Source: Lepisosteus oculatus (taxonomy: Eukaryota > Chordata > Actinopteri > Semionotiformes > Lepisosteidae). Taken from it: a DNA stretch of 64,000 bases. Shown here piece by piece: positions 1-46,018 of the stretch. The notes below the pieces were generated by a model. The model was not told the DNA's origin, did no database searches, and saw only the letters and a program-made list of their open reading frames with translations. Where the stretch lies: assembly GCF_040954835.1 (NCBI RefSeq), contig NC_090706.1, positions 41,177,148-41,241,147 on the forward strand, in the 5' to 3' direction. The position numbers and the translations under genes were made by a program. Position 1 is the stretch's first letter; each line of letters begins with the position of its first letter.

Positions 1-246
1 TTGTTTCTGGTAAAACAGTTGACTAGTACTGTCACGTACCTTGAGAAATTTCACTGGTCTTCTTTGACATTTTATGAGAATATGTGCCTGCTTGTAGGTG
101 GACTCTAATTGTACCTTTAAGTGCTCCCAGTGCTGCTGCCACTGTGAAGAGCACAGATAAACAGGGTAGTCTGTTACATCCCGAAGCTGAGGCTGTCCGG
201 GTGCAGTACAGTCTGCTAACACTTGGTGTCTCTGCTGCATGTCCAG

Positions 247-7224: not shown

Positions 7225-10200
7225 TCAGGATCTTCTTATACCACCCGAAGAGCTAGGAGGACGTTTCAGGTGCAGTTCTGGCAGTGAAGGGTTGGGGCTT
7301 GCGGTCATTCCTGTGGGAATGTAGTACATGCTCTCCAGGTAGTTCTGCTCTGTGGGCTGGTTGCTCGGCACCTCTGGCTTCAGGTTCTGGCTGGCTGCAC
7401 TGCCATGTGGGGTGCTGCCCGGCAGGTCAGGGTGACCTGGCGGCAAAGCTGGGTGAGAAGGCATCGGCAGCCCAGAATAAGGCATGTAAGGTGAGCTGTA
7501 CATTCCTGGGTTCATAAATGAAGAATAAGGGGAGGCTGGGTTCTGGTACACCCCGCTGTGCGACAGAGCTTGCTGGGGTATCAGCACCTCCACATACTGT
7601 CCTGTTTCAGGATCGTACAACATTTTGCGCAGTGGTTGGACAGGCATGTCAATGTAGAAGTATTTCCCGGTTTCAGGGTCGAGCAGCACTTTTCTCGGAC
7701 TCTGATTGTACTGGAAGCAGGGCACGGCGGAGCTGGCGACGTTCCCAGGATACGGGAGGCCTTCACTCCCACACTCGGCAGCGAATGGAGACAGGAAGCC
7801 CCTGGGGCTGCACAGGAGTTGCTGCCTTGTCTCCTGGGCCGTTTTCGGGGGCTGGTGGAGAGGACTTCCACCGGCGGGATGCGAAGGCTGTGGCGATTTA
7901 TGACGGGTCACGCTGTGGCCTGGCCTCTGACTCGCCCGCCTCTCTTCAGACTCCAGTTGCACTGGAAAGAAAGAGGCAGCTGAAGGAGGGTGAAGTGGAG
8001 CTGGAGGCACAGACTTCATCTGCCCCGCCTGGAGAGGAAACGCCGGGTGATTCAGAGCACTTGTGTCTGTTCTTTGCGTTTGGGATGTCATCGCCTGCTG
8101 GGATTCTGGTGTTTCACTGTCGCACCAGGCACTAGCAGGAGAGGGGGCTGGGGGACTCGGCAGTGGAGCTGGGCTTTTCTGTGTCGCAACAGAACATGAA
8201 CACTTGGGAGGAGCAGGGCAATACTTGTCTGGCTTCCCGGGTGGCAGATCTGTTGCAAGAAGCCGGCTGAAACTCTCCCTTTCATCATAACTAGGAGGGT
8301 CGTCTGAAGCATAAAGATCTTGACTGAATTCTCCATAGCTGCGACTTTCTGGCTGCAAGATGGAATCCTGTGTGGATTTATGGCTGCATTCATCAGTCAG
8401 TTGCTCTTTGCTGGCATCCGATGCTGCAGCCTGACACTCTGGTGGCAGGAGGTCAGCTAGGGTTTGACTCTGTGGCAGGGGGAGGTCTGCTTCAGCTGGG
8501 GTCTCCATTCTTCCTGACTCTAAGCCTGTACTCTTGAGAACGCATGTTTGCAATGGCACTTCCAGAGTGTTGACATGCTTGGGAGCAGAATTACTGTCCT
8601 CACTGGAGGTTTCGCAGACTCCTATGTCAGCCTGGAATCCTTTCTCTTTCAAGATCATAGAAACTGAATGGCTGCTGCTGCTTGGAAGGCAGCCTGCAGC
8701 TGGTGTCTCCTCTGGTCCATCTTTCAGGACGAGCAATGTGGATATTTCCCTTTCTCTACTGGGAGGATCAATGCTTGTGTCGCTGAGCTCTGGGTTCCTA
8801 ATCCCTCCCAATGTCAGTTCTGAATTCTTATCTCCATCACTGTCTAGCATCTTCACAGGCGTTTCTCTCAGACCTGTGGTCTTTGTAACGGAGGTTTTAT
8901 CAGGTGTCTTACGCATGTCTTTGAGTAAGATGCTCTCGATTTTACTGGTCTTGGGACTCACGGAAATAGAAACGTTTTCCCTGGTTTGCACCACTGGAGA
9001 CACGCATGTTGTTTTCTCCTCCTTCTTTGTAACACTGTGGCTGTCATCTGCCTTGCTTTCTGGTCTGCTGATGGATTTGCACTCTATTAACACTGGTGGT
9101 GGACCAGCAGGCAGGAAGAGGGCTTCTTCTGGCTCTGGCAGCTGACTTTCTTGAGGTGGGGCAGCTGGCGCCTTAAACGACAAATTGTAAGTATTTTTCA
9201 CAAGCTTCCTCACATCTCTCACCTTGTGAATCAGAGTTTTTCCTTTATTATGTGAGGTAGTTTCCACCAGGTCACTTTCTTTGTTTTTCTCTTGGTCTAC
9301 TCCAGGTGTACTCACTGGACGTAATGACTCTCCATTCCCCACTTTTCCGGTTTCTTTGTCGGGAGACAGACAGGCAACTCTCAAGGTAGTCCGAACCTTG
9401 TCGTTTGTGTTGGGTTTTAGAGTTATCTCTGGGGCTTCAGACTTAAATATGGCTCTTGGATCCTGCTGTTGACACTTTTCTGTGTTCACAGGATGCTGCT
9501 CTTCTTTGTCTGTCCTTCCCGACTTGCTGCGTGTGGGTCGAGCGGTACTTATAACATCCACCCTGCCTGTCGTGCTGGAACTTGCTGAGTCACGCCATTG
9601 CTGCCCAGGATTGTCGCTGGCATTGTGCTCCGATTCGTCTTTCATGATCCCTTCATCTGTGCATGCCTTCCTCTTCTCACAGGGTATAACCAGTTCTGAC
9701 CTTTTCCCTTGCTTCCCGTTGCTGCTTTTCGTATTGGCAGCTCCTTCCACACAGTTCTCAAAAGCATTGAAGCTGTATTTGCAACATGGCTTCTGGTGCG
9801 TTTTTGCACTCACCGTGGTGTTAAGTATTATGTTGCTGGTATCAGTCACATTCTGATTGCTTAACTCCAATTTGCCAGGCAGCAGAGGCTCCAGTGACAG
9901 CTCTTCTGAAGAAAGGCTGCAGTCTGACTTGACCCCTGAAGTAAAGCAAAGATCTGAAATTTCGTTCTTTGGAGTCTCCCTGCAGCGTTCCAGACCTTTG
10001 TCACGGCCGGGTGAAGCAGTAACCGTGACTGGTGGCTGCCCATCCCGAACAGTCCTCTGAAGCTGTTTCAGTTTGTGTTCGTACAGCATCTTCTTAGACA
10101 ACACATTTTTTATGAGGCAAGATGCAAATTTAGTTTTACTAGACGTCTCATCCAGTGAGACAGACTTCTGCAGTTTCTTTTTGTTGTCCTGTCGGATCGT

Positions 10201-11658
10201 AACATCCTCGGTTTTGTGATACCCATCTTGAATGGCAGCCGGTGTGCTATGCTGGCGTAGCAGAATGTCCTGCGTACGCCTCTCAGAGCTCCTGTGCGTG
10301 GGTTTACATTCGCTTTCGCTGGACTCACTTGCTCTCGACTCGCTGGTGTCGCGTCTCTTGAGCTGGATTTGACGTTTGGGCACAGTCCTTTTGCCTCTTT
10401 TTAGCTCATCTTTGCTTTCAAGAGCCACATCCTCGCATTCAAAATTTCCCATCTCAAACTGCTCAGCGGGCTCCTTGCTGTCTGGCGCAATGACATCATT
10501 GCCATCTGTTCTGGACGAGCCGCGCAGGTCAGCGTACGCTGACCACACATTAGCCCCGCAGCTCTCCCCCGTCGAGGGCCGCGACGCGTTGGCGGAAGAC
10601 CTGTAGCTGGAGTTGTAGATGTCAAGGTAGTCGACTTGAGGGCTGGACAAGCTCTTGAAGGCCAGGTCGGTGAACCACTTCACCTCGTTGTCTGCTTCAT
10701 CCAGCTCACTGCCCATGCTGGACGCCTCGCTGGCGCAGTCTCTGGTTTGGTGGGTTGCCGCGGACGGACTGTGGCTGCTCTGCTTCCTTGCACTTCCTGG
10801 CTGTTCTTTCGGCTTCTGCCGCTGCGGACTGAACGGACACTCTGAACAACAGCGCCCTGGCATTCCCAGCAGGGGCTCTCTGTCTGTAAGCACTGTGCTG
10901 GAACTCGCAGGCCCTTTTCTATTCTTGGCCGTGAGTGACAGCTGAACCTGTTGCTCCTTGCAAGTGGTGCCGCAGCTGCCCCCCCCCACAGTGGGATCAC
11001 TTTCGCTGCGTCTGCCGACGGACCTTGAGCTAATGAGGACCGGCTCAGTGGAGGCCACTCTCAGAGAGGGGTGTCCCCCTACTGCCACACTCACTTCACC
11101 CTCTTTCCGCCACTCTGGCTCAGGAATCGGACCTGTGTTCTGTACTTCACTGCTGTCCTGCGTGGCCAGCTGTCCGGGGCTGCGGGGCATTACTGTGGGG
11201 CGATTAACTCCGGCCGTGAGCGCGATCTTCTTGGCCGCGTGCCCGCGCTGTGAGATGTGGCTTTCGGGGGCGACCCCGTGCTCCGAGTCCGTTTGCTCGG
11301 GCGACAGGTCCTCTTTGGAATCCTCGAAGTTCTCGCTCGAGTCGCTTGAAGGCTCTGCAGCCTCCGAGCACAAGGCCGTATGGTACGAGCCCGAGGAGTC
11401 GCAGACTGCATCGTCGATCTTCGAGCCTTCGGCGGAGTCTCTCTTACTGGACATGTTGCTACTTAAAAACACAGGGGCGTCGCTGTCATCACCAAAAATA
11501 TCGCAGAGTGAAGTCCTTTCTGTAATAGAGTGCTGCTTGCTTCTATTGCGCACTGCATCGCATAAGAACAACTCGGTCATATTTTCATCGTGATTTTGAA
11601 TGCTGGGGTCTCCATTTGTTCTCCTAAGAACATGGAGGTTTTCTTCTTCAGAAGACAT
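7225..11658 (-). CDS. prob1: PROB1-like proline-rich basic protein (C-terminal DPETG-repeat domain)
   Basis: A single uninterrupted frame of 1477 codons, which fits the single coding exon of human PROB1 but is about 460 residues longer. Most of the protein is low-complexity, rich in Ser, Pro, Thr, Glu and Lys, and probably disordered. A short conserved patch around residues 320-380 (EVKWFTDLAFKSL...) resembles the N-terminal conserved box of PROB1/CEFIP relatives. The C-terminal part, about residues 1310-1365, has two tandem half-repeats, DPETGKYFYI and DPETGQYVEVLIP, which is the DUF4585-type domain shared by PROB1, C4orf54 and C10orf71/CEFIP. The molecular function of PROB1 is not established; CEFIP is a muscle Z-disc partner of FHL2 and calcineurin. 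Position between slc23a1 and spata24 supports PROB1 rather than its relatives. The ATG at 11658 is the first in frame; a likely acceptor just upstream implies a non-coding first exon. Confidence 0.88.
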   Translation of the reverse strand: MSSEEENLHVLRRTNGDPSIQNHDENMTELFLCDAVRNRSKQHSITERTSLCDIFGDDSDAPVFLSSNMSSKRDSAEGSKIDDAVCDSSGSYHTALCSEAAEPSSDSSENFEDSKEDLSPEQTDSEHGVAPESHISQRGHAAKKIALTAGVNRPTVMPRSPGQLATQDSSEVQNTGPIPEPEWRKEGEVSVAVGGHPSLRVASTEPVLISSRSVGRRSESDPTVGGGSCGTTCKEQQVQLSLTAKNRKGPASSSTVLTDREPLLGMPGRCCSECPFSPQRQKPKEQPGSARKQSSHSPSAATHQTRDCASEASSMGSELDEADNEVKWFTDLAFKSLSSPQVDYLDIYNSSYRSSANASRPSTGESCGANVWSAYADLRGSSRTDGNDVIAPDSKEPAEQFEMGNFECEDVALESKDELKRGKRTVPKRQIQLKRRDTSESRASESSESECKPTHRSSERRTQDILLRQHSTPAAIQDGYHKTEDVTIRQDNKKKLQKSVSLDETSSKTKFASCLIKNVLSKKMLYEHKLKQLQRTVRDGQPPVTVTASPGRDKGLERCRETPKNEISDLCFTSGVKSDCSLSSEELSLEPLLPGKLELSNQNVTDTSNIILNTTVSAKTHQKPCCKYSFNAFENCVEGAANTKSSNGKQGKRSELVIPCEKRKACTDEGIMKDESEHNASDNPGQQWRDSASSSTTGRVDVISTARPTRSKSGRTDKEEQHPVNTEKCQQQDPRAIFKSEAPEITLKPNTNDKVRTTLRVACLSPDKETGKVGNGESLRPVSTPGVDQEKNKESDLVETTSHNKGKTLIHKVRDVRKLVKNTYNLSFKAPAAPPQESQLPEPEEALFLPAGPPPVLIECKSISRPESKADDSHSVTKKEEKTTCVSPVVQTRENVSISVSPKTSKIESILLKDMRKTPDKTSVTKTTGLRETPVKMLDSDGDKNSELTLGGIRNPELSDTSIDPPSREREISTLLVLKDGPEETPAAGCLPSSSSHSVSMILKEKGFQADIGVCETSSEDSNSAPKHVNTLEVPLQTCVLKSTGLESGRMETPAEADLPLPQSQTLADLLPPECQAAASDASKEQLTDECSHKSTQDSILQPESRSYGEFSQDLYASDDPPSYDERESFSRLLATDLPPGKPDKYCPAPPKCSCSVATQKSPAPLPSPPAPSPASAWCDSETPESQQAMTSQTQRTDTSALNHPAFPLQAGQMKSVPPAPLHPPSAASFFPVQLESEERRASQRPGHSVTRHKSPQPSHPAGGSPLHQPPKTAQETRQQLLCSPRGFLSPFAAECGSEGLPYPGNVASSAVPCFQYNQSPRKVLLDPETGKYFYIDMPVQPLRKMLYDPETGQYVEVLIPQQALSHSGVYQNPASPYSSFMNPGMYSSPYMPYSGLPMPSHPALPPGHPDLPGSTPHGSAASQNLKPEVPSNQPTEQNYLESMYYIPTGMTASPNPSLPELHLKRPPSSSGGIRRS

Positions 11659-11763
11659 GTTTTTTTGTCATACTGATCTGAATAAAGCTGATAAAACAGG
11701 CATTTAGGCAAACTTGCGAGTGTTTTCTCCTGCTATGGGGCACAGGAGCACGACTTTGACCTG
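11659..11763 (-). other. Likely 5' UTR exon part and splice acceptor of prob1
   Basis: Reading the minus strand, a pyrimidine-rich tract ending TTTTCACAG (AG at 11762-11761) lies about 100 bases before the prob1 ATG. This suggests the coding exon is preceded by an intron and an upstream non-coding exon that I could not place. Confidence 0.5.
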
Positions 11764-17527: not shown

Positions 17528-20500
17528 TCATGTAGGACAAGGCTGTGGGTGACGGGTCCTGCTTCTGCTCTTCTTCAGAAGCTCTCGGGCTATGTAGGCT
17601 TCTTGCTGTTTTTGTATCTCAAGGTCCCTCAGCTGGACTCTGATAGAATAAGTAAGATAAGACTAAGACTGGGTAAGCAAAACCCCAAACAAGCAAGAGA
17701 ACCTGCTATTGCAAAACCCCATGAGAGCATTCAGTGGCTCAGTAGTAGGCTCTGTGTATGGGTCTGTCACTGTAGTCTCTTTACTAGAACTGGCTGCAAT
17801 GGGAGAAGAACCAGACACTCTACTCATGCCACCTTCCTCAGTGGAACCAGGAATCAAACTACAAGGAAACAAATTCATAACAGCCAATCAAATCTACCTG
17901 CACGTCACTGGTAAGAACCTGGAGCCTTCAGACTCCATGCAGAAAGCCATCAAAGTCCAGGAGGACCTGAATGCTACCATGCTCACTATGGAAATGCATA
18001 CACTTGCTAAAGTAATACCTAGAGTAGACCAACACTTCACTCTGATTCTTCTAATTGTAACAAGCAAGTATCTTTGCTTTTCTGTCTAGACCATTTTTAG
18101 TCTGGGGTGAAATAAGGACAGATCATCTTTGATGATGAGGAGGTGGGATGCTTAGACCAATAATTTGATTTTACAAAAGCTGTTTTTTCTCATTCTTGGG
18201 GCAAAGGAAAAATAGCCCTTTACTTGTCTGGCTTTCAACTCTCTCAATAAACTGGCTGGTAACACACTGTGACGTGAATCTAATAAAGGAAAAGGCAACT
18301 GACTTCCTATACATACAGGGAGTATTAAATGTACCTACTTAAAAGTGTTTTTTTGTTTTTCTAATTTCCTCTGGAGTTCTCTGATTTGGTCATCTTTTGC
18401 TTTCAAAATGGCCTGGTGCATTAGAACAGAGGATTCAAAATCTGAAAGAAAAACATCAGTTAACTTTATAGCCTGCACTACAGACATCACTAACTCTGCT
18501 GCACAGACCTGAAAAACAACAAGCACAGTTGCCAGCAGACTGGTTTCCAATTATTTAATAACTAAAAATCAGTAGTGTTACCAACAAAATATTAGGAAAT
18601 ATCTTTGGAATTACATGGTTTTTACAGCATAAAATATTGTTGCATTTATCCTTGCCATCTCATGTTAAAATCATCCAGGCAGTTTCTCCCAGAAACTCTG
18701 AAATTAATATCTGTACCTTTAAATCAAAGGTGATTTGGCCAAATAAACGTGAAGGCAGAAGTAACGGCTGGAGACCATGGGAGCATTCTGCACTACCATT
18801 CGGTAACGAGCTGCCACTCATTCCTGTCCTGTTCCACTCATACAGAGCCCGTGCTGGACTGCGTACTGGCTGAGTGACGATGACAGGTATCTAGTATGGA
18901 CTACATGGCTCACGCCCATTCAAATACACTTGTAATGGGAAAAATCAAATGGCCATTCCCCACCCATTTAGGAGATGTGAGGGCTTTGGACTAAAACATC
19001 AGGAAGTGCTACAGCCGAGAGCAGACAGCTCCATCTACAGGCAGCTGACCAGAAAGAAGATTACAGTGACTGCAGAGTTTGTGTGTCCCTTAGGATGGTC
19101 TGAATTCTTCTATATTTCAGATGTAAAACATTATTAGATCATCATGAAAATAGTATTAAAAGATTAATATAACCTTATTTAACATAAATAAATAAATTCT
19201 ATGTAATGTTTAATTAAATAAATTATCTATGAATTAAGTAATCTATCTAAAATCATGTAACAGTAAATATCCTTGGGCCGAAAAGTGAGAACTCAGTAAA
19301 TGGTGGCTCCTGTTTGTAAAGCATCTGACTGCAAACATTAAAAAGATTTTAAGGAAATGAAAACTTACGACTACACTTGCTTTTCATTTTTTCATTTTTT
19401 GCTGACTCTTTCAGTGCTCTGTTCTTCATACTGGCAAGCCTGGGTGAAAAAAAGATGGAAAAAAACATTTATGTATGTTTTTTATGATTTTGCATTAAAA
19501 GCCTCTACGCATCTTTACAAATAATAGTTTAATTGACATATCTGACAATTATTTGCACAAATATCAGTTAAAGATGTGATAAAATGTCATTACAAAACCA
19601 GTAAACAGTTAAGGTAAGTCTAAGGCAAGGCTGGTAGACAGCAAGTGAAATATTGGGTGTTTACTCTCATTAACACTTTCATAGTTTAACCTTCATAGCT
19701 GGCCTAATGTTTGGAATACAAAGGCTACAGGACCTGCAAGACAGATTATGTGCGATACAAGATTATATATTTCAGATACTTAAAGAGTACAGTGTTAATG
19801 TCAACTGAAGGAATCAGTTTTATTTTGGTGGATTTTATTGTTTAGAGCAGGACTAATAAATGTTATGTATTATGACAAAGTTAACAAGTGTTTACGCTTT
19901 TTCAAAAGATTCCTTTTCTCTTTGAAGGTTTTTTGAGAGAACTTCTATCTCGCCCAGAGCGAAGTCCAGCTTCTCTGACTCCCTGGCCAGCAGTTCCTGT
20001 GTCCTCACACGCCACTGTCTCTCGCTCTACAAGGTAAGGCGGACAGTCGGTCAGTTCCCGCGTCCTCACACGCCACTGTCTCTCGCTCTACAAGGTAAGG
20101 AGGACAGTCGGTCAGTTCCTGTGTCCTCACACGCCACTGTCTCTCGCTCTACAAGGTAACCGCGGACAGTCGGTCAGTTCCCGTGTCCTCACACACGTTA
20201 GTAGGCATCAGCAGAATCAGGACACACAATGTGTACTTGTACACTGTCCTCCGAGATCGCCAGGCACTGCACAGGCACGCAGACTGGAGCAGGTCCGGAC
20301 GGGCCGCTGGGCTCAGAGCTGTCCGGAGCAGGGCTGGCCCCAGGCAGAGCAGCAGAGCACAGCCCAGCCTCCTCCCCCACCTTGTGCATCATGCAGGTAT
20401 TGAAGCTTCTGTTTCCGTTTAAAAACCACGCCGCCTGGGACACGGAACTGGCAGGGCTACATGGAGGACAGAAAGGGCTCCAGCCCCTAGTTACCTCCAG

Positions 20501-25133: not shown

Positions 25134-28100
25134 TCACTCCCCGCGCTGCCTCCCCGCCAGCCGGTACAGTTTGTCGCAGTTGTCCAGCTTCATGGACTCG
25201 GCCTTCTGCTTCAGGCGCTCATCCCGGTACAGCTGGCCCAAATTGGCCAAGTCCGATTCTGGAAGAGAGCGAACAGCGATTCAGTCCCAGGAAGAGCACA
25301 CTCTCCCGCACGCAGCTGCCCCAGCCTCCCAGACGAGATCAAGTCACAAGATGGGAATGCTACTGTCAAGAGATCAGCTAATGAGGTCCGCCTAAAATTC
25401 AAACAGAAATTATCAGCAATGTGGTTTTATCATTAGGAAATAACACTTTTTTCTTATAAAAATGTCACTTTAATTTTAGTAATCGGAAGCAGAAGAAATT
25501 GTGGTGGGCTTCATATGTTTGGTACTTTGCACTGCTTTCAATTCTTGCAGTCTGAGCTCCAACACGTAGGCTGAGCTGTCCCTGGTCCTGCCTACTGTCC
25601 CCCCACAGCACAGGGGAAAAACTCATCCGACTGACCTGCCTAAGGAAGACCAGTAATGTGACTGGATCTTGACGTCACCTGGATTCAACAGACCCTAAAG
25701 AACCCAGGCAATTCCCCGAACCAGATAGGGTTGATGTATATGAGATGAAACGGCATGTGCAGTCTAGACAGTAAGACTGGAGCTTGAACGATCATCGCTT
25801 CTTGCACTGCACATAAAACAACAGGAGTCATGGATTTCTCCACCAGCGCCATCTTAAGCCTGGCTCTCTGGCACATCAGCATGTGGGGCTCATCACCTCC
25901 CTCAGGCCTTAAACAGAACCAGTGGGACAGGAGCCGAAGGCTTGGAGCAAGCCCTTTTCCCAGAGCAGGATCCCAGTTTCGAAAGAGAGGCAGGAAACGT
26001 TTCAAAGGGAGGTCCATTTTTTATGGCCCTAACACTTGCTCGGTGGGGACGAACGGTTTGAGGAAAATGCCTTACTCTGCTGCTTCTCCTTCCAGCAGCT
26101 GGTCTGCAGGTAGTCGATATAGTCGCTCTCGATGGACTTCTCCAGCTCTCGGAGCGCGGCGCCCTTGTACTCTTTCTCAAAGCTCTTGTCCACATAATAG
26201 GGCACCCCCAGGTGCTGCGTCTCCCTCGACACCACGAGCCCCAAGGACCTGCAGGCAACACCACACAGCTACAGCTCACCTGGACTCGCCGCCCAGCACA
26301 CAGGATCAGAAAACAGATTTATCACTAAGGCGTTTACTCTCGAAAAGCTCGTTTTGTTTGCCTTTTTGCCTGCTGCCAATACAGAATGGTAAATTCAAAG
26401 AACTGTCCGAATCTTTAAATAGATTTTTATACCCCTAGATCAGGCCCGCCCGTTGAACTTCTCTGAGTGGCCCGCAGCTCACTCCTGTTTGAATCTCAAG
26501 GGTTACTTTTTGCATCAGATATTGAAAATCTTCCACCAGTGGCCTCTACTTGTTAGCTCTGCTGCTCTCCCTCAGCACTAATGGTCAAATGCAGAACAAC
26601 ACCTATTGCACGATGCATTTTACTTTTAGCCCATCAGACGTCAGCTTTAGCCCAGGTTACATACGCCTGTGCCACAACCGATTCCCCCCTGTGAATTCAT
26701 TAGGATTTTTGTTGCCTATCGTGATTGGCTCAGTCACGCAAATGACGTCTAGTGAAAGCGGGTCATGATTTCAAACGGCTCTAAAAGTTGTTACTGACAA
26801 GAAGCTAACTAAGTGATTCCTGCCATGTTGACAAAAAAGAAAGATCGATGCAGAGAGTCGAAAATTCAACGAAAAATGGTCAGGGGAGTACTTGTGTGTC
26901 CCTTGGAAATAAAAGGTAATGTGTCTTTTCTGTCTGGAAACAATCGCCGGGGTTAAAGAATACAACATAAAAAGGCGTTACGAGACAAAACGTCAGTATT
27001 TTAGAATACACAGGAGACGGACGGAGGGAAAAATTAGAACAGTTGAAAAGTCGCTTCAGGGGCAGCAAAAACTGTTCAAGAGAAAATTCAAATAAAATGT
27101 TGCAGCTACCTGAGCTGGTTAACGAGTATCACAGCTTCAAGCAGCAGCTGGCCGACCCTTCACGGGCGGCGAGTTTATTCAGCAGTGTGTGCTATTACAG
27201 TTGCTGAGTTTATCGGCTAGATAGAGGATTTCACTCAGGTGTCCCAGCAAGGTTAGTAAAATTGTTTTAGTGGCCCTTGCTCTAAAAAGTTTGCCGACCC
27301 CTGTCCTAGAGATACATGGTTCAGCATTTTCAGCCAAAGGTCTTGCTCACAAATGCATTTTTTTCCCCCTCTGGTTATGTGTTTTAAATTTAAAACTTAT
27401 AGGTGAAAGAATAGCTCTAATGCCACTTCTTTCTGCAGAGTGTGCATTTCACAAGACAGCCAAAGGTCACGTCTTCAATGTTGTTAGGGCAGGAAATGCT
27501 AATCTTAATGAGAGTCCCATGTGGCCAATGAAAAAGGAACAATTCTGAAGGTGCCAAATCAGCAGAACTTTGCAGCATAAGGTGAATGTGGTCACTTCAA
27601 CAGTTACTCTACTGTCTATGCGGACAGGAAGACCAGGAAGGCACATTTGTACAAGAACGGACAGACAGGACAGAATGTGTCATCTCCATGTGATTATGGA
27701 TTATTTCTGCAGTGTCATGTTTTGTGTGGTTGCTGGGTCAGCTTAATTTATCTTAACAGCTTAACTCCTCACTGAAACACTCAGATCTTGCCTGAGAAGG
27801 CAAAAGGTTTTTGTAAAAAAAAAAACTCTTCCAGCAAGACTGTGTGTTTGGACACCTGTGTGGTGTGCACAAGTTTGCAAGTATTTTGGTGTGCAGAGAT
27901 ACTTGCAGAGCAGCAGAGCAGCCTGCCTTAATATGCCACGCTGAGAGCATTAACAGAGACTGACTGCACCTGTCGGGTTCAAACAGGTGGGCAGAGCACA
28001 TGCTACTGCGCCCTCTTACTCTCTGGGCTCTGCAACATTTGAAACTGGAAACCAGTGCCGCACGGAGCTCCACACTCTCGTGACAGCAGCATTAGGAAGA

Positions 28101-31100
28101 GTCATTTCAGCACGGGGGAGTGATTCCGGCTCTCGGTTTCAGAGGCCAGAGAGAAGATCTGGACATGAAGAGTCCTGGGTGCTGGATTCTGCCTGTGGCC
28201 CCTCAGCCAGCGGCAAACTCATTGAAAGACACAGAAAGAGCCGAAACCGGAACTGATCAGAACGAATAAACGTGAACTTGAACTTCCTGCAGCTCACAGT
28301 TAGATTTTGGTCTAATTTTGTGATGATAAAGCAGCATTTCTGTCTTATCACACAGAGAGCTCTCTTCCTCTTTTCACCTCCCACCACAGGATGCAGCCAA
28401 AAATGACAGCTTGACATAAGTGCTACTAAAAGACATAGAAAAACTTTCTCGCGTGTTCTTCCAATGTTGCGAACCCGGATTAATATACCAGTCATGTCTG
28501 TTTCATTCCTTTTTTGGTTTCAAGAATTATTATTTTTGAGAACTCCTCCTGAAAGTGCTCTTTTGAAATAGATATTGAGCTGCTGTCATTATTTTGACAA
28601 TACTGATCTGAACTCCGAAACTGTACGACGTCATCAAACACAACACAGGAATAAAGTTTGTTCATTACAGTCATTTTACAAGGACACTCTGAGTCTAACT
28701 CAAATACCTGATAAAAAAAACCTCCAGAGAGCAACAGAGCAACTGGAGACATTCCTGTGCAAATGACTTACGGTTTGTAGAACAAGCTGTAGGGGGGATT
28801 GGAGGCCATCAGCTGGGTCACCACAGAGATCAGTATGAGCACAAGCACGGGCAGGAGCTGAAGAAATGCCGTGAATGTGTTCTAGGACAAAGAAGAGCTT
28901 GGATTATAAACAGCCTGCTGTGCCCCGGCCTTGAAGTGCCACAGACAGCTGGTCTCACACACAGCCCTTGGGGAGCCAGCCCTGTAGAGCGCAGGCCTCC
29001 CCTCTGCACTGGCTACACGACCCAGTGTTTGCCACCGGTCTTTTCAAACACACGAGCCAATACTGAGGTTACACAGCAGGGCTTTGAACAGCCCCAAACG
29101 CTAGGCCCCAGTCTCACAGACAAGGACATTGAGGCTGCCCGTCAGAGCTCTTTCATCTAAGGAGCTCCCGTCTCATATTTTCTCACGTCACCTCTCTTCC
29201 TAGGGCAATAGAGCCACTGGCGCAGCCCTTCAGCCATCCCGCCCTCACCCGCGGCGCGGAGCGCGGGAGCCACGCAGACGCCTTCACGATTAGCACACTC
29301 CAGCGAGCCCCCCCCCCCATCTCCCCCGCAGCCGTGCGAGACGAGCCGCTCGTGGCGCCACGCCCCCCCTGCCCGCTGCAGGAACCGTTACCTGGCTCTG
29401 GTGCTCCACCTCCTCCTCCCTCCTCTCGTTCATGCGGCGGCGGGGGGGCTGGTAGTAGTGGGTGTACGTCGCCCCTCTGTTGGTGTACATGTGAATGTTG
29501 CCTGGAAAACACATTCTGTACAGTTAAGAGAAAAAAAAATCTCATTCATATTTTACACTGAAACCCCCTGAGAGGCTTGACACGCTAGTCTCAAGCATGA
29601 CTGGCAAGGCAGCACACAAATGCCCATTTCCTGCGAACAGCCTAACCCAGCAGGGGGCTGTACGGGCAGGGCCTCTCCAGCCGCTCCCAGTTCTCCGAGT
29701 GGTATCCCGGACGTGCTCGTACAGTGCCCCGTGGATGAAGCAGGGCTTCTGGTGCCCGGCGGGGGCTGCGGACCAGGCTGCCGGCAGGACAATGCCATGT
29801 CCACACGGGGGCTACGAGCCCGGATCAGGTATTCTTAGGAAGAGTCACAACAGACCGGTCGCAGGGAAATCATCCACACTGAAACGTACGCTTGTGATCT
29901 GGATTCGGCTACACGAATACACAGGCATTTAAATACCACTAAACAAGAGAACGTATTTTGACTACTGATAAGTGTTAAAAGTGCAAAATGATCATTTACT
30001 TCTAGTGGAGTTTTCTGGAGATGATTCGATGTAGGGATCACTGATTTTCAGTGGTCCTTCCAGATAGCTTTTCATAGCACATTGAATTGGTCCCGTCAAG
30101 ACAATAATGATCTAATTTAGGCTGAAAGCTAAGCTGGAATGAAAACCTGCAGACCCTGCTCACCAATAACATAACATATAGACCATAACAGCCTCCACTA
30201 AGAGCGCTGCAGCTACCCTGGGTGACAGGGCGCGATGGGGGGGGTGGTCAGGTCCGAGTTGCCCACGGTTTCATCAGACAGCCCCTGTGAGCTTGCAGAG
30301 CCGTCAGTAAGAGCTGCAGCATTCGTCCACCTGACACTTGACTGTGCTGTTTCCGCTGTGAGCTGACAGTGTGAAATGCAAGCGGATGATGACAGGGCAT
30401 CTTTAGGGCATGTGAGCATGTGATCGAGAGCAGTCTACATCTGGCCCGAGCCGGTGTGGAGTGTATTGCGACAAGCTGAGCTGGTCGGTTCCTAAGAAAT
30501 GGGACGAGGCCAAGAAAATATGAGTGACTCTAATCGCAGAACTTTTAGAAATTGAAGTTAGTTCAAATAAGAAAAAAGCACAGGCTTAACCAGCTACTGG
30601 CACTGCATAGGCAACTGGATATCTGTCCATCCAATGCAGTGATCTTCTTCTCTGGTTATGGAGGGCCTAAACTGTTCAGATTTCACGTGTGTTGTCAATT
30701 AGTGGCAAGATCACATTAAGCCAGCATAACTAAACAGCCTCTTAGAGATCTGAGAGTAACGGAGAGTTTGACTGCACTGAAAACCATAAAGTCTAAAGGG
30801 TTTAGAGGAACATGAAGGCACAACTGCTTCTTTAATCGCTTTCATCACAGTTTAATTTATGCCGCAGTTCAGGTGGGTAGCTGCGTCAGCACCCGAAGAA
30901 GCCGAAACGTTGTGTTTTCTTTCTACTCTTTTCAGCTATACTGTGTTTAGTGAACTGGACTAATCAAAGTGACCATGCTATGCGTCAGTGATTCGCTTCA
31001 CAGATGCCGTGCTCTCTCTCCTTACTGAACGAAGCCCCTATTCCACACGCACAGGAAGGAAAAGCTCACAGAAGACCGGAAACACCTGCTAGAGGGGTGG

Positions 31101-34100
31101 GATAAGGAGGTGCAGGATCACCTGTGGGGAACCGCCCCCCGAAGAAGATGTTGAAGAGCTCTTCTGGGGAGATGTCGGCCTCGAAGTCCCTGTAGAAGTT
31201 GCGGTGGTGTCGGTGGTGGGCGGGATGGGTGGGATGGGCGGTGCTCTCCATGGGCGGCTCTTCTCCGTACTGGTCGTACTGCTTTCGCTTCTCGGGGCTG
31301 CTCAGCACGGCGTAGGCGTTCCCTATGGCTGAGGGCACAACCGGAGACGCAGGTCACCTTCCCACGGCGCGCTCGCAACACAAGAGGCAATGACAGATTC
31401 ACAAGAGTCCTCCCAATTATTCATTTCCTTCCCACCATGTCCATCACACTCCAGTCCCCGAGAGGCACCTCTGTTCTCACTACTGATTCATGTGACAGCA
31501 ACGGTAAATGCTTTTGACATACAACATGAATGTGTTACGTATGAAAGAATAAAGGGGCAGAGCCAAAAGCACTATCTAGTCCTTGTTATTCCCAGACCAG
31601 TTCAGGAACAATGATATCACTGGCACTGAATACCTTTAAAAGCGTCAGTAGCTCCAGGGGCACAGTTTTTGTCTGGATGGAATTTGAGGGCCAGTTTCCT
31701 GTAGGCTTTCTTCAGATCCTCATCGCTGGCATCTTTAGTCACACCCAAAATCTCATAGAAGTCCTTGCATTTCTTTATCCTGCAAAAAAAAAGGAGCACA
31801 TGCTGTGGTCTCGCAGAAAGTTTGAGTACAGGGTGTACAGAAAGTTACACAGCCTTCTATGCAAAATCCCACATTTCAGTCAAGTGACTGCCGAGCATGA
31901 TGCAAGTAGAAAACTGAGCCCCCTCAGTTTGTCTTTCTGGCAACACATAAGTCGAAAATTCGTCCCACTCAGCTCAACAAGTTTAGCGGCCTTTCTTTCA
32001 GAGGACACTAGAAACCCCCGTGACAAATACAGAACTGACATTAAACACTTTTGAAAACTGTAAATGATGACTAGGGCATAATGAAATCCTGCTGGTTCTT
32101 CAGTTTACCCATCTAACGAAAAAACATGCATCGCGGTCACTCTTAGTAACTGTAAATTTTATTTTATTTTTTCAGCCTGGTGATTAAAATTACAGTTCCT
32201 TACTGCAACCCTGGGACGCAGGTCCAATTCCAGACTAATAAAGCCTTGAGATGCTGTGTTCAAGAGGCTAGAAGTGATTTCAGCAAAAATCTGACAGTAA
32301 AAAGTAAAGTTCATAGTAAAATAATCACAAATTTGAAGTATTTTGCTGCAGTACACTACCCTACCCTGCATTATCCGATGGCTCTACACTTCTGGAAACA
32401 CAGAGTTTTCTGTCTTGGAATCCCAAATCCTGTTGTGATCTGAAAGTTGCAATGTGGAGGCAAGAGAAAAGACAACAGCAGAGGGCGCCTGTGAGCGGCG
32501 CTGTACCTCAGGACACCCTGCCGCTGCTCCTCTGTGTAGCTCTTGGCCTCCGCCTCTCTTCCTGAAAGAGCGTCGTCCTCGTCGCTCGGCCGCCGGCTGT
32601 GGAACTCGGGCACGCGGCCCCCTTCCCCTGCCGCACTCCCATTCCTCACGATGGCGTCAATTAAGGCTAAAAAGAGAGAGGAGGATCAGTCACACAGTGT
32701 CTGCGGTCTTCACACAACCACCACGACCAGCCACCATCCCAGACTGCCTGCACTCTCCCACTCCCTGTGTCCCAGTGATAAGGGGATGATCACTGCCGTG
32801 GCGGCTCAGCTGGGTGGAAAACACTCCCTTCTTTAAAACCTCAAAGTTTTCAGGGCACCGCTCAGCGCCCCTGCGTCACCCCGACCGCTCAGCGCCCGTA
32901 CAGCACCGCGACTGCGTCACCCACAGTGAAAACCACCCCTCAGCCCATGTGCCTTACTACAGGCACCAATTTCACTCATTTATTACTTCTTAGTTAGACG
33001 GAATCCTTATTATCTCACTTCTGACTGAGACAGAATCCCCGTGAAGGTGCTCAGTGACTCCTCACTGTTGGGGGACGGGGTCACTTGTTAATACTGCCCA
33101 AAGCTCACTGCAGACACACTAGGCAAGGAAGCTTCTGGAGCAGCACGGCTGCCCCTGACTTCTGCTCTGCCAGCTTTCTGTCTGAAACTGTTCTTCCTGG
33201 AAGGACTCCTTATCGTGACACATCATTCTCAGCATCACAGACCAACAGAAAAACCAGCCAGGCTGGAAATTCACATGACAGGAGTTCCTGTTGGCCTGCA
33301 AGTTTCCTGGAGTTGATACAGAAAAAAAGGCAGAAAAACATCTTTTACCACATGGCTTAAATTGACATGTATTAATTTTCTTCTTGGCCCTTTGTGCAGT
33401 TATTGTGTTCTGTGGTGTGGATTAATCGTACAAGGGTCACTTAGAAAGTAATGCCACGTAGATTTAAAAAACACAGTTCCCACAGAAAACAACGAAGCAA
33501 TCCATACTGCGAGCTTAACTTGCCAAGTTCTTGTTGTTCAAGTTCAGAAATGTTCCTAGAGACACCCCCTGCAATTAGCCATCAAACATCATGAAAGCGG
33601 GGCATCACTTTCTGGGAGCCTGTCAAAATCAGGCCCCTATGTGAGGCTTGAAGGCGCAAGTAAGGGCTGCTGTAACTGCAAGAGCTTCGCTCCTGCAGAC
33701 TCTCACAACCCTACTATTGCAACAGCTGGAACACAGAACCTCTGTGCCAGATGTGCACATGCTCTCTGTGTGGCGATGTGCCTCGACGCAGCCCGCAACA
33801 ATCCATACCGTTTTCATAGTGCAGGACACATTTTAACCAACTGTAAATTACTTGAAATTACTAAATTTCTAGATGAAAATGTTTTCTACGGCAATCTGTA
33901 TCATTGACTCAAACTGGAAGGTGGCAGGAGTGTGCCAGAAAAAAAAAGGGCATTTTTGACCACCAATAGTTATCAAACTCCACAATATCCATCAAGGGAC
34001 AATGCTTTGCCTTGGCCTCAGTCACAGCTCATCCTGCACGGTATAATCTGTTCCATAAAAAGGGACAGATCGATCAAATGGTCAAACAAAGCTGAAAAAC

Positions 34101-37100
34101 ACATTTGGCCTCAGTTTAACTTCATGCATCTCTCCCTCAATATATAAAGCACTGTGTGAAACGTTCAGAAGGTGATGCTGGCCTGTGCAAAATAACTCCT
34201 AAAATCTGTGAGGAATCGCTGGCAGCGGGCGGCTCCCACAGCGCGCCCAGCCAGACCAGCCGGCCGCGGGCCCCAGCCTCCACCACTGTCTGCGGTGCAG
34301 AGTCACTTCCTGGTTCTCACCACGCGCGGCTGCGGCGGCCGGAGCCCCCGGCCAGCTTCCTGGCTTTCATCTCCTGCCAGGAGTCTGGAGGAGCGTCACT
34401 GTGACGCCAGCGTTCACGTAAGAGCGTCTGCGGCAAGCTCACACACTACATCCGCACACAGACACCGGAAGAGAGGACTGTGGGCTTTAACGTACACAGC
34501 TTGGCACTGCCCGGCCCGCCCCCGCCGGTCCGCCTCGGTGCAGGGGCGCAGGGCTTCCTGGAGTGAGTCACACCTGACCTCAGCGCACAACACGCGCTTC
34601 CCTCTTGGCCTGGACACGGGCACGGGCACAGGCACAGCCACACCGCCTGCGTCCTGCTGCAGGACAGAAACGAGCCCCATGAATTACTGACTTTTAAACC
34701 CACTGGGTGAGTATTTTTACATCTGAACTGAAATACAGGAAAAACAACCCATCGTTGGGACCTGGTGACATATTATAACACCCAGAAGGCTAGCGGTTTT
34801 AAGGTAGTACTGCTTCTTCACTGCCCTTCGGTCCTGGGTTCGCTTCTGTCCACATGGGTGACAGCAGGTGCACCCATGTTCTCCCACTTCCCAGTGACAC
34901 ACTGTCTTGGGTAACTGGTGTCCCCGTATGTATGTGTGCAGCAGCAATGGGCGAGATCCGATCCGGAGGCTATGAAAAAGGTTACAGATGAGACGAGGCT
35001 GTTCAGCCCATCAAGCCTCCAGGCAGCAGCTAACTGACTGGCATCAGCAACAGGCTGGGTAGCTTGTTCCACACTCCAAAAACCCCACCTCTGTGTAACC
35101 AAGTCACTCCTGACCTGACTGGAGGACACCATCCAGCTGTTTCTTGAAAGAAACCAAGAACAGGCTGGGTAGCTAATTCTGCACTCCCACAGGACATACA
35201 CATGCTGTCCAGGGAGTGCTCTACAGGGCCCTTAAGAGGAATAATCAGCTCTCTGATAATGGACATATTTCTTTATGATTTTCATTTTACCATACCGGTT
35301 AATAATATTCTATTTTATTAAGTGAAAGGCATGTCTTGGAGACAAAATGTAATTAATGCAGTGGGACAGCCTACAGAAAGAGGTGCGAGCAAAAAGAAAT
35401 AAAAGATTAATACAGATCAGCCGCTATAATATAGACTCCTACCCTAATTCATCTCCTAAAAATACAACTGTCTATAAGCTGAGTCATACAGCTCTACAGC
35501 ACATGCAAGGCTATAAAAGGCTTCCTTCATCACATGGGAAATCACATGTGCATTGGGACTCAACTAACCTGCCCATCCAGAACACCTGATTCATTTACTG
35601 ATGAACATCACATTCACCCCAGCAGAACAGGCTGAACACTGCCTTCCTTCCCTAAACCAACTGACTGAACATCACTAGTCAGGTGTTCTTTTATATTTTT
35701 TAAATGTGGAGATGTTCCACTGTCACTGAATTAAAATGGAAGTTGTTAACTGAAGTGTGGGAGGGATAACAATGACAATCAATATCTTGTTGTCCCTCGA
35801 AATTTCTCCTTAGTAAAGAAATTCTCTATAACCTGCAAAAACTGCACTGTCCTAAGATTATTTAACAATGTGCCTGTAAAACCTGCTTAAAAAGTAACCT
35901 AAATGGTGATGTTCAAGTTAGGTACTGAGTTAACACCAGCAAGAAGCTATGATTTAATTTACCGAAAAGCCTGCAAAGGTTTTTGGTTAAGTAGCACTAC
36001 TAAAAGTTTACTTGTACAAGAGATAAGGATAAAAAACTATTCAACTGCAAAACTAGAGCCCTTTCACCCAAAAATAACCTTCAAACTGTGTCACCCGTAA
36101 AATTAATGACAGGTTTCAAAGGAGAAAATTAATATTTTTACATCTCCGCTGAAGGCAGAACACCCATCTACGGTATCACTGCTGACCCCTCCATGGGGAG
36201 AGACCAGCAGCCAGTGGGAAAGAACAGACCTTCCTGGCGTTAAACAACTGGGTGAGAGTTCCTCTCCGCAGTGTTTAAAACCATCAGGAGGACTTTCCGG
36301 TCCCGGTGCTTCTGCGCGTACTGGGCTCAATGGACAACAAGCTTCGGGACAGAGCCGTGATGCAGGGGGCTCCCTCCTGAACTCAGTCTGTCCCCCCCGT
36401 GGGCTGTGCACACGCCGCGAGCACTCGTGGGGCTCCCACGGGAAGCGCCGCCGACACAGTCAGGGGTGCACAGTAGGGCGCAGTGCCCCGCCGCGTGACG
36501 TGGGCACATGGACGCCCTCATGACGCCAAAGCACATAAAAGACCTCAGAGAGGCAAGTTCATTCATCGCTGTGTTTAAAAGGCCTGCGGCTACAAAAAAA
36601 GGAAACTAGCATTTCCACGCAGATCGAGCCTCAGGCTCAGGGGCAGACTCGTCACTCCGGCGCAGGATCGCGACTTCAGGCCAGCGTGCAGCACTCCTTC
36701 TCCTGCGCTACAACACGCTATGGGTCACCTAGTAAGAGCCCAGCTGACGCCTCAAACTGAGGAACGCTTACTTAAAAAAAACGCAATAAGTAAAAACGAG
36801 ACTGTTGCTCAGTCCCGGTTCTAGATAAACAGCAGAACTGATTCTAGAGTGCGTCTTTAGCAGACACACACAGCGGCCGACAGAAAGCGCTGATGGCAGC
36901 CGGCCCCCGTTCTCTGTTCCAGACAAAGCCCGACAGATCCGTCATACAGACCCGACCCCTCCGACACCCCTGCCTCTGGCCTGGACTACTGGGCTAGCAA
37001 GAGCTCTCAGCGGACTCCAGCGGCTGCAGACCGCTCTGCAAGCGAGTCTTCACATTACTACTCGCCTTTTCTTTGAAATAAAACTGCACACTCGCAATGC

Positions 37101-37617
37101 GTGTTACAGGGATTGATAACGGAGGCGCATTACATTTCTACTAACACGGAGACATTAAAAGGCAGCTCACAAGTCAGCATGATCAGTTCGCGGTATCGCT
37201 GACAGCCCCGTACTCCTTCAGTATGCTATTTGTAGCCCGGCACTATCAGAATGTGCGAACCGTCCTTCACAGAGCTACAGCTGAATAGTTATCTCCTCGG
37301 GATGGCTTAACTGTTGCCATCGATCGTGCAAGGGACCCAGTTCTTAAAACTCCTCGTTTTCAACCATGCGCCTCTCCCGTTTAATACTGCAAGAACAAGC
37401 ATGCCATTGGGTAACCAGCCATACGAACGCTACAAGATGCACTGAAACAAGAACTGAACCATGCAGAATGGCGCTGCTGTAGCGAATTACCTCTCGCTCT
37501 AGTGCTGGGGTATACTTTCTGGGCCTCCTGCAACAACTGTAGAGCTTTCTCTCTTTTCCCGGAGCGCAAACACTGCTTTGCCTTCTCTATTAACCTGTCC
37601 GACTCCTCCTTTTCCAT
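25134..37617 (-). CDS. dnajc18: DNAJC18, membrane-anchored J-domain co-chaperone
   Basis: Eight coding exons on the minus strand: 37617-37491, 32666-32507, 31779-31634, 31328-31122, 29501-29392, 28881-28772, 26248-26076 and 25258-25134. Phases join perfectly to 385 residues (human about 358). Residues 1-40 form a helical, TPR-like segment as in DNAJB12/DNAJB14. The J domain spans about 102-167 with the HPD motif at 130-132, needed to stimulate Hsp70 ATPase. [18 protein letters not shown] segment follows, then a basic-acidic linker, a hydrophobic membrane segment at about 254-275 ([19 protein letters not shown]) and the C-terminal DUF1977-type domain ([12 protein letters not shown]..., CWKEKQQ). 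By relation to DNAJB12/B14 it should sit in the ER membrane with the J domain in the cytosol. The C-terminal domain ([27 protein letters not shown]) matches DNAJC18 more closely than DNAJB12 or B14, and the neighbours agree. Confidence 0.95.
26441..27303 (+). mobile_element. Fossil hAT-type DNA transposon in dnajc18 intron
   Basis: The right end reads AAAAGTTTGCCGACCCCTG, the usual end of a common hAT family (CAGGGGTCGGCAAAC in reverse); the left end starts CAGGCCCGCCCGTTGAAC. Flanking 8-base sequences CCCTAGAT (26433-26440) and TCCTAGAG (27304-27311) agree at 6 of 8, as for a hAT target duplication. Between them, about 26822-27090 on the + strand, a frame broken by stops and shifts resembles the N-terminal BED-finger part of ZBED/SCAND3/GTF2IRD2-type transposases ([20 protein letters not shown] and following). 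The rest of the transposase is deleted. Confidence 0.72.
30886..30950 (+). repeat. Dispersed repeat end with CGAAACGTTGTG motif, copy 2
   Basis: Contains CGAAGAAGCCGAAACGTTGT and TTTTCTTTCTACTCTTTTCA, matching the core at 16000-16065 in the same orientation. It lies in a dnajc18 intron. Confidence 0.7.
34975..35245 (+). repeat. Fish-type dispersed repeat (GGCCCATC family), copy 2
   Basis: Contains GGCTGTTCAGCCCATCAAGCC, then GGGTAGCTTGTTCCACACTC and CCTCTGTGTAACCAAGT, in the order seen at 17130 and 38222. A second partial unit (GGGTAGCTAATTCTGCACTC) follows at about 35167, suggesting an internal duplication. Confidence 0.7.
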
Positions 37618-42984: not shown

Positions 42985-44416
42985 TTAAAACTCCTGTATC
43001 AGGGGGCCTGCGGAGGAGTAGAGCTTTCTTTTCACCAAGCGGAAGCCGGGGCTGAGCTTGAGAACTTTGCCGAACAAGTGCCTCAGGCTGGGCCAGTTGT
43101 CCTGGTCGGCTTTGAACACCACGGAGAGCTCGAAGGTGGGGGTCACGCTGCGGTCGGGCACGATGCTGCCCAGCGCCCGCACGGCACTGCCCGTCTCCAG
43201 GTGGACCTGGATGACCGCCCCCCGGAGTCCGCACGGCTCGTCCGAGGCCGTCCGCAGCGCGTCCCGCGCGATCCTGCCGGCCAGCTGGCGCGGGATGAGC
43301 ACCTCCTGGCACTGCAGCTCGGTCTTCTTGGCCCGGGCCAGGCACAGCTCCATCTGCTGGGCCAGCTCCTGCCACAGGCGCTCGTCCAGGGGGTCCTCCG
43401 GGCTCCTCCTGTCCACACCTGCAACAGGGCGGAGGGTTGACAGCAGCCCCAGAGACACACGGAGACACCTGAGCCTGCTGCTTACTGCAGCCCCTACAAG
43501 CTGCTCTGAATGGATATTTCCCCAGTAAGACTTGTGGAACTCTTGGACAAAAAAACATCTCAAAACGCGAGACCATGATCTTCCCGTTGAAAACACTTAA
43601 AGCCCACAGCAGATCGAGTTTCTTAAACTTATGTCACCTCAAGCCCTGATGGGCATAACTCGGGAGTCCAGCTCTGTATCAAACTCTAGGACGGACCAAA
43701 AGATGACTGTCCCAGGGCGGCGCACCCCTGAAGGCGCAGGGCTGCCCTTCCCAGCCCTCGGTCGCGCTGAAACCGGCCCCAGCCGCCGCGCCAGATAAGA
43801 TCAGCAGAGTCTATTTTTATCAGCCAGCCCCGATCATATGAGCTGGCTTTCGAAATCGAAGCAGCCGGTCCTAGGGCACTGGATCAGGTGACGAGGAAAC
43901 CGCCGGAGCCCACGGGGAAGCGAGCAGGGGCGGTTATCAGCAGATAAGAGCATAAACCACCGGCACCTTGAACTTGTAACTAATTCTGCTGTGCGATGAC
44001 GGCGTAAGGACCTGGATCCTTACATATATTTAGCTGAACCCCTTCATGCACTATTTTTTTTTAAACTGCGTCTCTGTTTTCATTAATTTATATTACCTTA
44101 TTTGAGAACCGTGTAAATAAAAAATAAATAAGTGCAGCACATTAAATAGACTCCTCATTTCATCTTGGTTACGTGTTGTACTTGATACACAAGTAACATT
44201 AAAAAACAACAACAACAACAACAACAACAACTTACCAGAGTCCTCGCTCATCTCTCCTTCACTGGAACAGCCGCTGTCAAAGGGCTTGTCGGCGCACTTC
44301 TCCTTTCTCGCCGAGGTGAACTGGTTGACGAACTTCTTCATCGCCTCGACCAAGTTGTCCTCTTCCGACAGGACCCCCATGCCGTGCGTGAAGCCCAGGG
44401 CTTGGGAATAGACCAT
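42985..44416 (-). CDS. DDIT4/REDD-family stress-response regulator (third paralogue)
   Basis: Two coding exons on the minus strand, 44416-44236 and 43418-42985, join in phase to 204 residues (human DDIT4 232, DDIT4L 193). DDIT4 (REDD1) and DDIT4L (REDD2) restrain mTORC1 through TSC1/TSC2 under stress; the same role is inferred here. The conserved core runs from about residue 72 to 204: LWQELAQQMELCL, EPCGLRGAV at 121-129, TPTFELSVVFK at 153-163, and GFRLVKRKLYSS at 185-196 with the basic patch known to matter in REDD1. The loop before GFR is about 11 residues shorter than in DDIT4. The N-terminal 70 residues match neither paralogue; they contain DSGCSS (47-52), which fits the beta-TrCP degron DSGxxS. 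It lies next to dnajc18, the relative of DNAJB12 and DNAJB14 that neighbour DDIT4 and DDIT4L. Not assigned to DDIT4 or DDIT4L. Confidence 0.92.
43791..43950. promoter_or_regulatory. GATA/MEF2/E-box cluster in ddit4-like intron
   Basis: Within 160 bases of the single intron: AGATAAG at 43793-43799, MEF2-like CTATTTTTAT at 43811-43820, TTATCAG at 43817-43823, CATATG at 43835-43840, GTTATCAG at 43933-43940 and AGATAAG at 43942-43948. Four GATA-type sites in so short a space suggest an intronic enhancer; this is inference from motifs. Confidence 0.4.
44205..44231. repeat. (AAC)n microsatellite beside a splice donor
   Basis: About nine AAC triplets on the + strand; read on the minus strand they form (GTT)n directly after the GTAAG donor of ddit4-like exon 1. 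Confidence 0.9.
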
Positions 44417-44496
44417 CTCAGAGCAGCGCTGCCCGGCCGCACACTCAGCGAGCCGTGCGCCAGAGACCTCGCCGCCGCGCCGCCCGCACCGGCCCC

Positions 44497-44542
44497 TATA
44501 TACTTCCAGCTGTTGCGTCAGCTGCCGGCCCGTGTTGCATCT
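44497..44542 (-). promoter_or_regulatory. TATA box and ATF/CARE-like sites of the ddit4-like gene
   Basis: On the minus strand TATATA lies at 44502-44497, about 80 bases before the start codon. Upstream of it are TGACGCAA (44520-44513) and AGATGCAA (44542-44535), each one mismatch from the C/EBP-ATF composite TGATGCAA. ATF4 is an established inducer of DDIT4, so stress induction through these sites is a reasonable guess. Confidence 0.55.
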
Positions 44543-45796: not shown

Positions 45797-46018
45797 CTTG
45801 CCTGGGTGTACTGTACTGGTGAGAGTATATTGACCTTGCCTCAGTATACTGTACTGGTGTGAGTATATGGACCTTGCCTCAGTATACTGTACTGGTGTGA
45901 GTATATGGACCTTGCCTCAGTATACTGTACTGGTGTGAGTATATGGACCTTGCCTCAGTATACTGTACTGGTGAGAGTATATGGGCCTTGCCTGGGTGTA
46001 CTGTACTGGTGAGAGTGT
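45797..46018. repeat. 38-bp minisatellite, about 5-6 copies
   Basis: Tandem unit reading CCTCAGTATACTGTACTGGT then GTGAGTATATGGACCTTG, with minor variation in the outer copies. Confidence 0.9.

What the first reader, a model, noticed from the sequence alone, without database searches (positions are those of the whole stretch)
42985..44416. A third DDIT4/REDD gene beside dnajc18, completing a three-way DNAJ-DDIT4 paralogon
The sequence shows a complete two-exon DDIT4-family gene next to dnajc18. From knowledge of the human map, DDIT4 neighbours DNAJB12 (10q22) and DDIT4L lies near DNAJB14 (4q23-24); DNAJB12, DNAJB14 and DNAJC18 are paralogues. Here the third chaperone also has a DDIT4-type neighbour. 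prob1 strengthens this, since its relative C4orf54 lies near DNAJB14/DDIT4L. The simplest reading is a 2R-derived ohnologue kept in this lineage and lost from human 5q31.
Basis: partly seen in the sequence, partly recalled or inferred. Interest (0 to 1): 0.8.

Follow-up and report, generated by a model that had tools for sequence, protein, structure and literature searches.

The report
Third DDIT4/REDD-family gene beside dnajc18
This vertebrate genome carries a third, intact member of the DDIT4/REDD family of stress-induced growth brakes, beside the chaperone gene dnajc18, and it looks like an old sister of DDIT4L rather than a recent copy.

Summary
Minus-strand exons 44416-44236 and 43418-42985 (GT-AG, phase-1 intron) encode 204 residues with an RTP801_C domain (134.5 bits, cut-off 27). 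A whole-genome search finds three such genes over the cut-off: ddit4l on C1, ddit4 on C4, and this one; a fourth, weak C7 match is a decayed ddit4 relic. On C4, ddit4 neighbours dnajb12, mirroring the window. In a five-sequence tree the third protein is excluded from DDIT4 and best placed outside this genome's plus human DDIT4L. That fits an old duplication, compatible with 2R. Its placement as sister of the C1 ddit4l alone is not rejected by the KH or SH tests. Other vertebrates, loss from human 5q31 and further 2R families could not be tested. Likely function: TSC-dependent mTORC1 inhibitor (inferred). New member of a known kind.

The parts
44236..44416 (-). coding exon 1 of the third DDIT4-family gene (ATG at 44416; 60 codons plus one base)
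   Evidence: GT donor, phase 1
43419..44235 (-). phase-1 intron, GT-AG
   Evidence: phase-1 introns in ddit4 (C4) and ddit4l (C1) were read by eye from the sequence printed
42985..43418 (-). coding exon 2 with the whole RTP801_C domain; stop codon at 42985-42987
44417..44525 (-). proximal promoter candidate: TATAWA 86 nt and TGACGCAA 104 nt upstream of the ATG
   Evidence: motif matches only, no chance estimate made; last 300 nt GC 0.61, CpG o/e 1.09
25158..37617 (-). dnajc18: first coding exon 37617-37492, J domain 31775-31635 continuing at 31329, DUF1977 26235-26074, later exon 25277-25158
   Evidence: positions; Pfam (second J-domain piece 18.9 bits, below the cut-off); exons read
18338..20026 (-). 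two spata24 exons
   Evidence: 51.9 bits (over the cut-off 27) and 21 bits (below it)
7228..11667 (-). prob1 large coding exon with DUF4585
   Evidence: 103 bits, cut-off 27
220..3059 (+). exons of an SLC23-type permease (slc23a1 by position, recalled)
   Evidence: three ORFs tested: 33.4 bits (over the cut-off), 14.9 bits (below it), and one without a match

Best explanation
The locus is a third vertebrate REDD gene, an old sister lineage of DDIT4L that has stayed beside dnajc18, most simply a product of the early vertebrate genome duplications. Shown: the intact gene, its family, its neighbours and its exclusion from DDIT4. Inferred: the 2R date and the function. The expected mechanism is that of REDD1/REDD2 (recalled): stress raises transcription, here possibly through an ATF4/CEBP-like site next to a TATA-like box; the protein frees TSC1/TSC2 to switch Rheb off, and mTORC1 signalling falls.
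For: RTP801_C at 134.5 bits. Three such genes over the cut-off in the genome (6 of 6 candidates scored). Phase-1 intron in all three genes. ddit4 and dnajb12 are neighbours on C4, and of 1362 window ORFs run against about 81 kb of C4, 29 gave a hit: 1 is the DDIT4-type gene, 7 are dnajc18 exons or their antisense, and 21 fall in four stretches that look like repeats. Domain identity: third to C1 ddit4l 71/133, third to C4 ddit4 52/133, C1 ddit4l to recalled human DDIT4L 99/144. Best tree puts the third outside DDIT4L, RELL 0.79 (LG) and 0.85 (JTT); inside DDIT4 rejected, SH p 0.001 and 0.003. In simulations, 0 of 100 under each of the two DDIT4L-internal trees reach the observed difference (a liberal test). 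EPCGLRG and KLYS are kept in 5 of 5 aligned sequences.
Against: Sister to the C1 ddit4l alone is not rejected (KH p 0.20 and 0.12; SH p 0.42 and 0.33). The dnajb14-ddit4l adjacency is absent here. Arrangement differs: the third gene lies 5' of dnajc18 on the same strand, ddit4 lies 3' of dnajb12 and convergent. Exon 1 shows no similarity above shuffles. The 1000 nt upstream of the third gene hold no RCGTG hypoxia-type core, whereas ddit4's 858 nt hold three, which speaks against direct hypoxia induction. The fold could not be modelled (pLDDT 44.3). One genome only, no expression data.
Confidence: 0.62

Rival explanations
1. A later, lineage-specific duplicate of ddit4l that moved to the dnajc18 locus and evolved fast.
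For: The third protein is closest to C1 ddit4l (71/133); this tree is 4.1 (LG) and 5.5 (JTT) log units worse and not rejected by KH or SH.
Against: It would have landed by chance beside the third member of the chaperone family whose member neighbours ddit4; 0 of 100 simulations under this tree reach the observed difference; it has an intron, so it is not a simple retrocopy.
Confidence: 0.2
2. The gene arose by an old segmental or tandem duplication before or between the two genome duplications, not as a simple 2R quartet member.
For: Order and orientation relative to the chaperone differ between C11 and C4.
Against: One DDIT4-type gene per chromosome, each chromosome with one DUF1977 gene, is the pattern expected of genome duplication.
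Confidence: 0.12
3. The gene is intact in sequence but redundant or on its way to loss, with no distinct role.
For: It lacks 10-11 residues in the loop before the last conserved stretch and has changes in the YSEP and KKK stretches; no RCGTG motif in 1000 nt upstream.
Against: Open frame, canonical splice sites and a promoter-like upstream region; the crystallised human construct 3lq9 also lacks five residues in that loop.
Confidence: 0.06

Closest known systems
DDIT4L / REDD2 / RTP801L
   Same: RTP801_C domain; highest identity (71/133 to the C1 copy); 13 of 25 family-diagnostic columns match; phase-1 intron; in human, DDIT4L also lies 5' of DNAJB14 on the same strand (recalled)
   Different: 7 of 25 diagnostic columns are DDIT4-like and 5 are neither; 10-11 residues shorter loop; N-terminal exon not alike above shuffles (945 of 2000); other chromosome and neighbours; no acceptor-like site seen by eye before the ATG
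DDIT4 / REDD1 / RTP801
   Same: same domain, phase-1 intron, and lies next to a DUF1977 DNAJ gene
   Different: 52/133 identity; placement inside DDIT4 rejected; exon 1 not alike above shuffles (525 of 2000); other arrangement relative to the DNAJ gene; no RCGTG upstream where ddit4 has three

Membership tests
DDIT4/REDD (RTP801) family | RTP801_C domain over the curated cut-off | tested here: met
   134.5 bits, cut-off 27
DDIT4/REDD (RTP801) family | phase-1 coding intron before the domain, as in this genome's ddit4 and ddit4l | tested here: met
   (the two paralogues read by eye)
DDIT4/REDD (RTP801) family | fold of the REDD1 crystal structure | tested here: inconclusive
   sequence match to 3lq9 E 1.4e-23, but the single-sequence model has mean pLDDT 44.3 and was not used
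DDIT4/REDD (RTP801) family | TSC-dependent inhibition of mTORC1 | not testable with these tools
   needs a cell assay
DDIT4 (REDD1) subfamily | clusters with DDIT4 in a tree | tested here: not met
   SH p 0.001 (LG) and 0.003 (JTT) against both placements
DDIT4L (REDD2) subfamily | falls inside the clade of this genome's plus human DDIT4L | tested here: inconclusive
   best tree is outside (RELL 0.79, 0.85); sister to C1 copy not rejected by KH or SH; simulations 0 of 100 and 0 of 100
2R ohnologue set DNAJ-DDIT4 | each DDIT4-type gene adjacent to a DUF1977 DNAJ gene | tested here: not met
   adjacent on C4 and C11; same chromosome but 29.6 Mb apart on C1
2R ohnologue set DNAJ-DDIT4 | further gene families shared by the three chromosomes | not tested
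   PF15232, PF08332, PF12851 and PF04617 were asked but did not complete (and later)
2R ohnologue set DNAJ-DDIT4 | present in other vertebrate lineages | not testable with these tools
   no other vertebrate genomes are held

The most novel reading that the evidence does not exclude
A third vertebrate REDD subfamily, born in the early vertebrate genome duplications as the sister of DDIT4L, kept beside dnajc18 in some lineages with its own TATA-type, ATF4/CEBP-like stress promoter and a shortened domain, and lost on the line to humans.
Probability: 0.5. Interest if true: 0.55.

Novelty: new member of a known kind. Interest (0 to 1): 0.42.

Why it matters
REDD proteins link hypoxia and nutrient stress to mTORC1, and mammals are described with two (recalled). 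A third old copy would change the family's history and give a natural comparison for which parts of the protein are needed. None of the papers listed by my ten searches showed, by title or start of abstract, a third REDD gene. Several of those lists were cut (20 of 35, 15 of 22, 15 of 56, 8 of 100). The library lacks most subscription papers, and genome annotation pipelines may already list the gene.

Tried and rejected
Fourth copy on C7 (24.2 bits, below the cut-off, 3 stops). Rejected as an ohnologue: blastn matches C4 ddit4 in two pieces, 73.4% over 94 and 72.7% over 99 columns, lying closer together than in C4, so it is read as a decayed intronless copy.

Conserved N-terminal exon. Rejected: the exon 1 score against C4 is reached by 525 of 2000 shuffles, against C1 by 945 of 2000.

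Structure prediction. One single-sequence job, mean pLDDT 44.3; not used, and no fold search was made.

PPP3CA, a MICU1 fragment, UBE2D2, LAMTOR3, ADH5 and a P4HA1 fragment gave no hit in the fetched C1 and C4 pieces or the window. H2AZ1 alone hit, on C1 about 26 kb from ddit4l.

Papers. PMC9627712, PMC3530439 and PMC4277396 were seen as found passages only. All others were seen as search listings only.

Full report
Observation. The gene is real. On the minus strand, exon 1 spans 44416-44236 and exon 2 spans 43418-42985. The splice sites are GT-AG, the intron is phase 1 and the protein has 204 residues. Pfam gives RTP801_C at 134.5 bits against a cut-off of 27. The only strong solved-structure matches are human REDD1/DDIT4, 7mop and 3lq9; a third row, FAM32A, has E 0.22.

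Neighbourhood. From low to high coordinates, Pfam supports an SLC23-type permease (+; one of three ORFs tested over the cut-off), prob1 with DUF4585 (-), spata24 (-; one of two exons over the cut-off) and a DNAJ gene with J domain and DUF1977 (-). The third DDIT4-type gene follows on the minus strand, 5.4 kb upstream of the first coding exon of that DNAJ gene. The names slc23a1 and dnajc18 rest on this order, which matches human 5q31.2 as I recall it. Between about 45 and 64 kb I could name no gene, but I only read ORFs there and tested one of them, 58838-59314, which has no Pfam match.

How many copies. A whole-genome search with RTP801_C scored 6 of 6 candidates and found three over the cut-off: C1:32304817-32305173 (-), C4:19650937-19651296 (+) and the window gene. 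A fourth match, on C7, scores 24.2 bits with three stops and is read as a decayed intronless copy of ddit4. The C4 gene is ddit4 (86/142 to human DDIT4) and the C1 gene ddit4l (99/144 to recalled human DDIT4L).

Chaperone partners. A DUF1977 search scored 5 of 5 candidates and found three matches: C4:19657936-19658142 (-), C1:61920825-61921001 (+) and the window's dnajc18. On C4, pieces of dnajc18 find four exons of the partner on the minus strand between about 19658 and 19666 kb, converging on ddit4. The nearest exon found is about 6.6 kb from ddit4's stop, and the fifth query, the last dnajc18 exon, found nothing. The C1 match is called dnajb14 by elimination; its DNA could not be fetched. 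It is 29.6 Mb from ddit4l. No dnajc18 piece and no DUF4585 match was found in C1:32204001-32404000. A recalled H2AZ1 sequence hits there, about 26 kb from ddit4l. H2AZ1 lies beside DNAJB14 in human as I recall, so the pair may have been split by a rearrangement in this lineage; this is inference, and H2A.Z genes are hard to tell apart.

Unbiased comparison. 1362 window ORFs of 30 or more residues were run against the fetched pieces. On C4, 29 ORFs hit: one is the DDIT4-type gene, 7 are dnajc18 exons or their antisense, and 21 fall at 15.8-16.2, 30.9, 56.5-57.2 and 58.3 kb. On C1 there were 145 hits and only the best 40 queries were printed: two are the DDIT4-type gene and its antisense. I take the rest as interspersed repeats because most hit several places or both strands. 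I did not check them one by one; some, such as ORF 1006-1242, had a single short hit.

Tree. In the domain region the third protein is 71/133 identical to C1 ddit4l, 66/133 to human DDIT4L, 52/133 to C4 ddit4 and 54/132 to human DDIT4. Of 25 columns that separate DDIT4 from DDIT4L, 13 are DDIT4L-like, 7 DDIT4-like and 5 neither. Among five topologies the best has the third protein outside both DDIT4L sequences (RELL 0.79 with LG, 0.85 with JTT). Both placements inside DDIT4 are rejected (SH p 0.001 and 0.003). Sister to the C1 copy is 4.1 and 5.5 log units worse and is not rejected (KH p 0.20 and 0.12; SH p 0.42 and 0.33). Sister to human DDIT4L has KH p 0.08 and 0.05 (SH p 0.33 and 0.26). FastTree gives the split 0.90 (all). 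In simulations under the two DDIT4L-internal trees, 0 of 100 and 0 of 100 reach the observed difference; this test is liberal.

Date. The stem shared by the two DDIT4L sequences is 0.26 substitutions per site, against 0.15 and 0.30 after their split. This fits a duplication well before this genome's lineage parted from the human one. It cannot date it, and the species is not known. Passages of a catfish paper show four DUF1977 genes with dnajb12 duplicated (PMC4277396); three here would fit a fish without the teleost duplication, or loss. The planned Hox check did not complete.

Function. All five aligned sequences keep EPCGLRG and KLYS. The third protein has SDEP where human DDIT4 has YSEP, KRK where the others have KKK, and lacks 10-11 residues in the loop before the last conserved stretch; construct 3lq9 lacks five residues in that loop. 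I infer that TSC-dependent restraint of mTORC1 is kept. Upstream there is a TATAWA match at -86 and TGACGCAA at -104 from the ATG, in CpG-rich sequence. TGACGCAA resembles ATF4/CEBP sites (recalled). No chance estimate was made. Against direct hypoxia control, the 1000 nt upstream hold no RCGTG, while ddit4's 858 nt hold three. The C4 gene also has TATAWA matches at -75 and -73, which I read by eye as part of an intron end; C4 and C1 both show an acceptor-like sequence before the ATG, and the third gene does not.

Literature. Ten full-text searches listed no paper whose title or abstract start describes a third vertebrate REDD gene; several lists were cut. Zebrafish redd1 is described as orthologous and syntenic to human REDD1 (PMC3530439, passages).

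Verdict. A real third REDD gene, probably an old sister of DDIT4L. The three-way adjacency is two-way in this genome, with the third pair only on the same chromosome. The 2R claim is likely but not settled.

Noticed in passing
L006 (G000:C7:12240258-12240569, minus): Decayed intronless copy of ddit4 with three stops, about 73% identical to C4 ddit4 in two pieces.
   Followed up: partly
G000:C1:61920825-61921001 and G000:C1:32304817-32305173: dnajb14 (by elimination) and ddit4l share a chromosome but are 29.6 Mb apart, while an H2A.Z-like gene is about 26 kb from ddit4l, suggesting a rearrangement in this lineage.
   Followed up: partly
window 56508-57243, 15820-16153, 14028-14360, 58274-58462: Stretches whose ORFs on both strands match places in the C1 or C4 pieces, probably interspersed repeats.
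   Followed up: no
window 19895-21100: Short units repeated in translation around a spata24 exon (SERQWRVRTQEL-like and GRAGRYAGRRAGCES-like), likely tandem repeats.
   Followed up: no
window 45800-46000: A short unit (tatactgtactggtg...ggaccttgcctcag) repeated several times in tandem beyond the gene.
   Followed up: no
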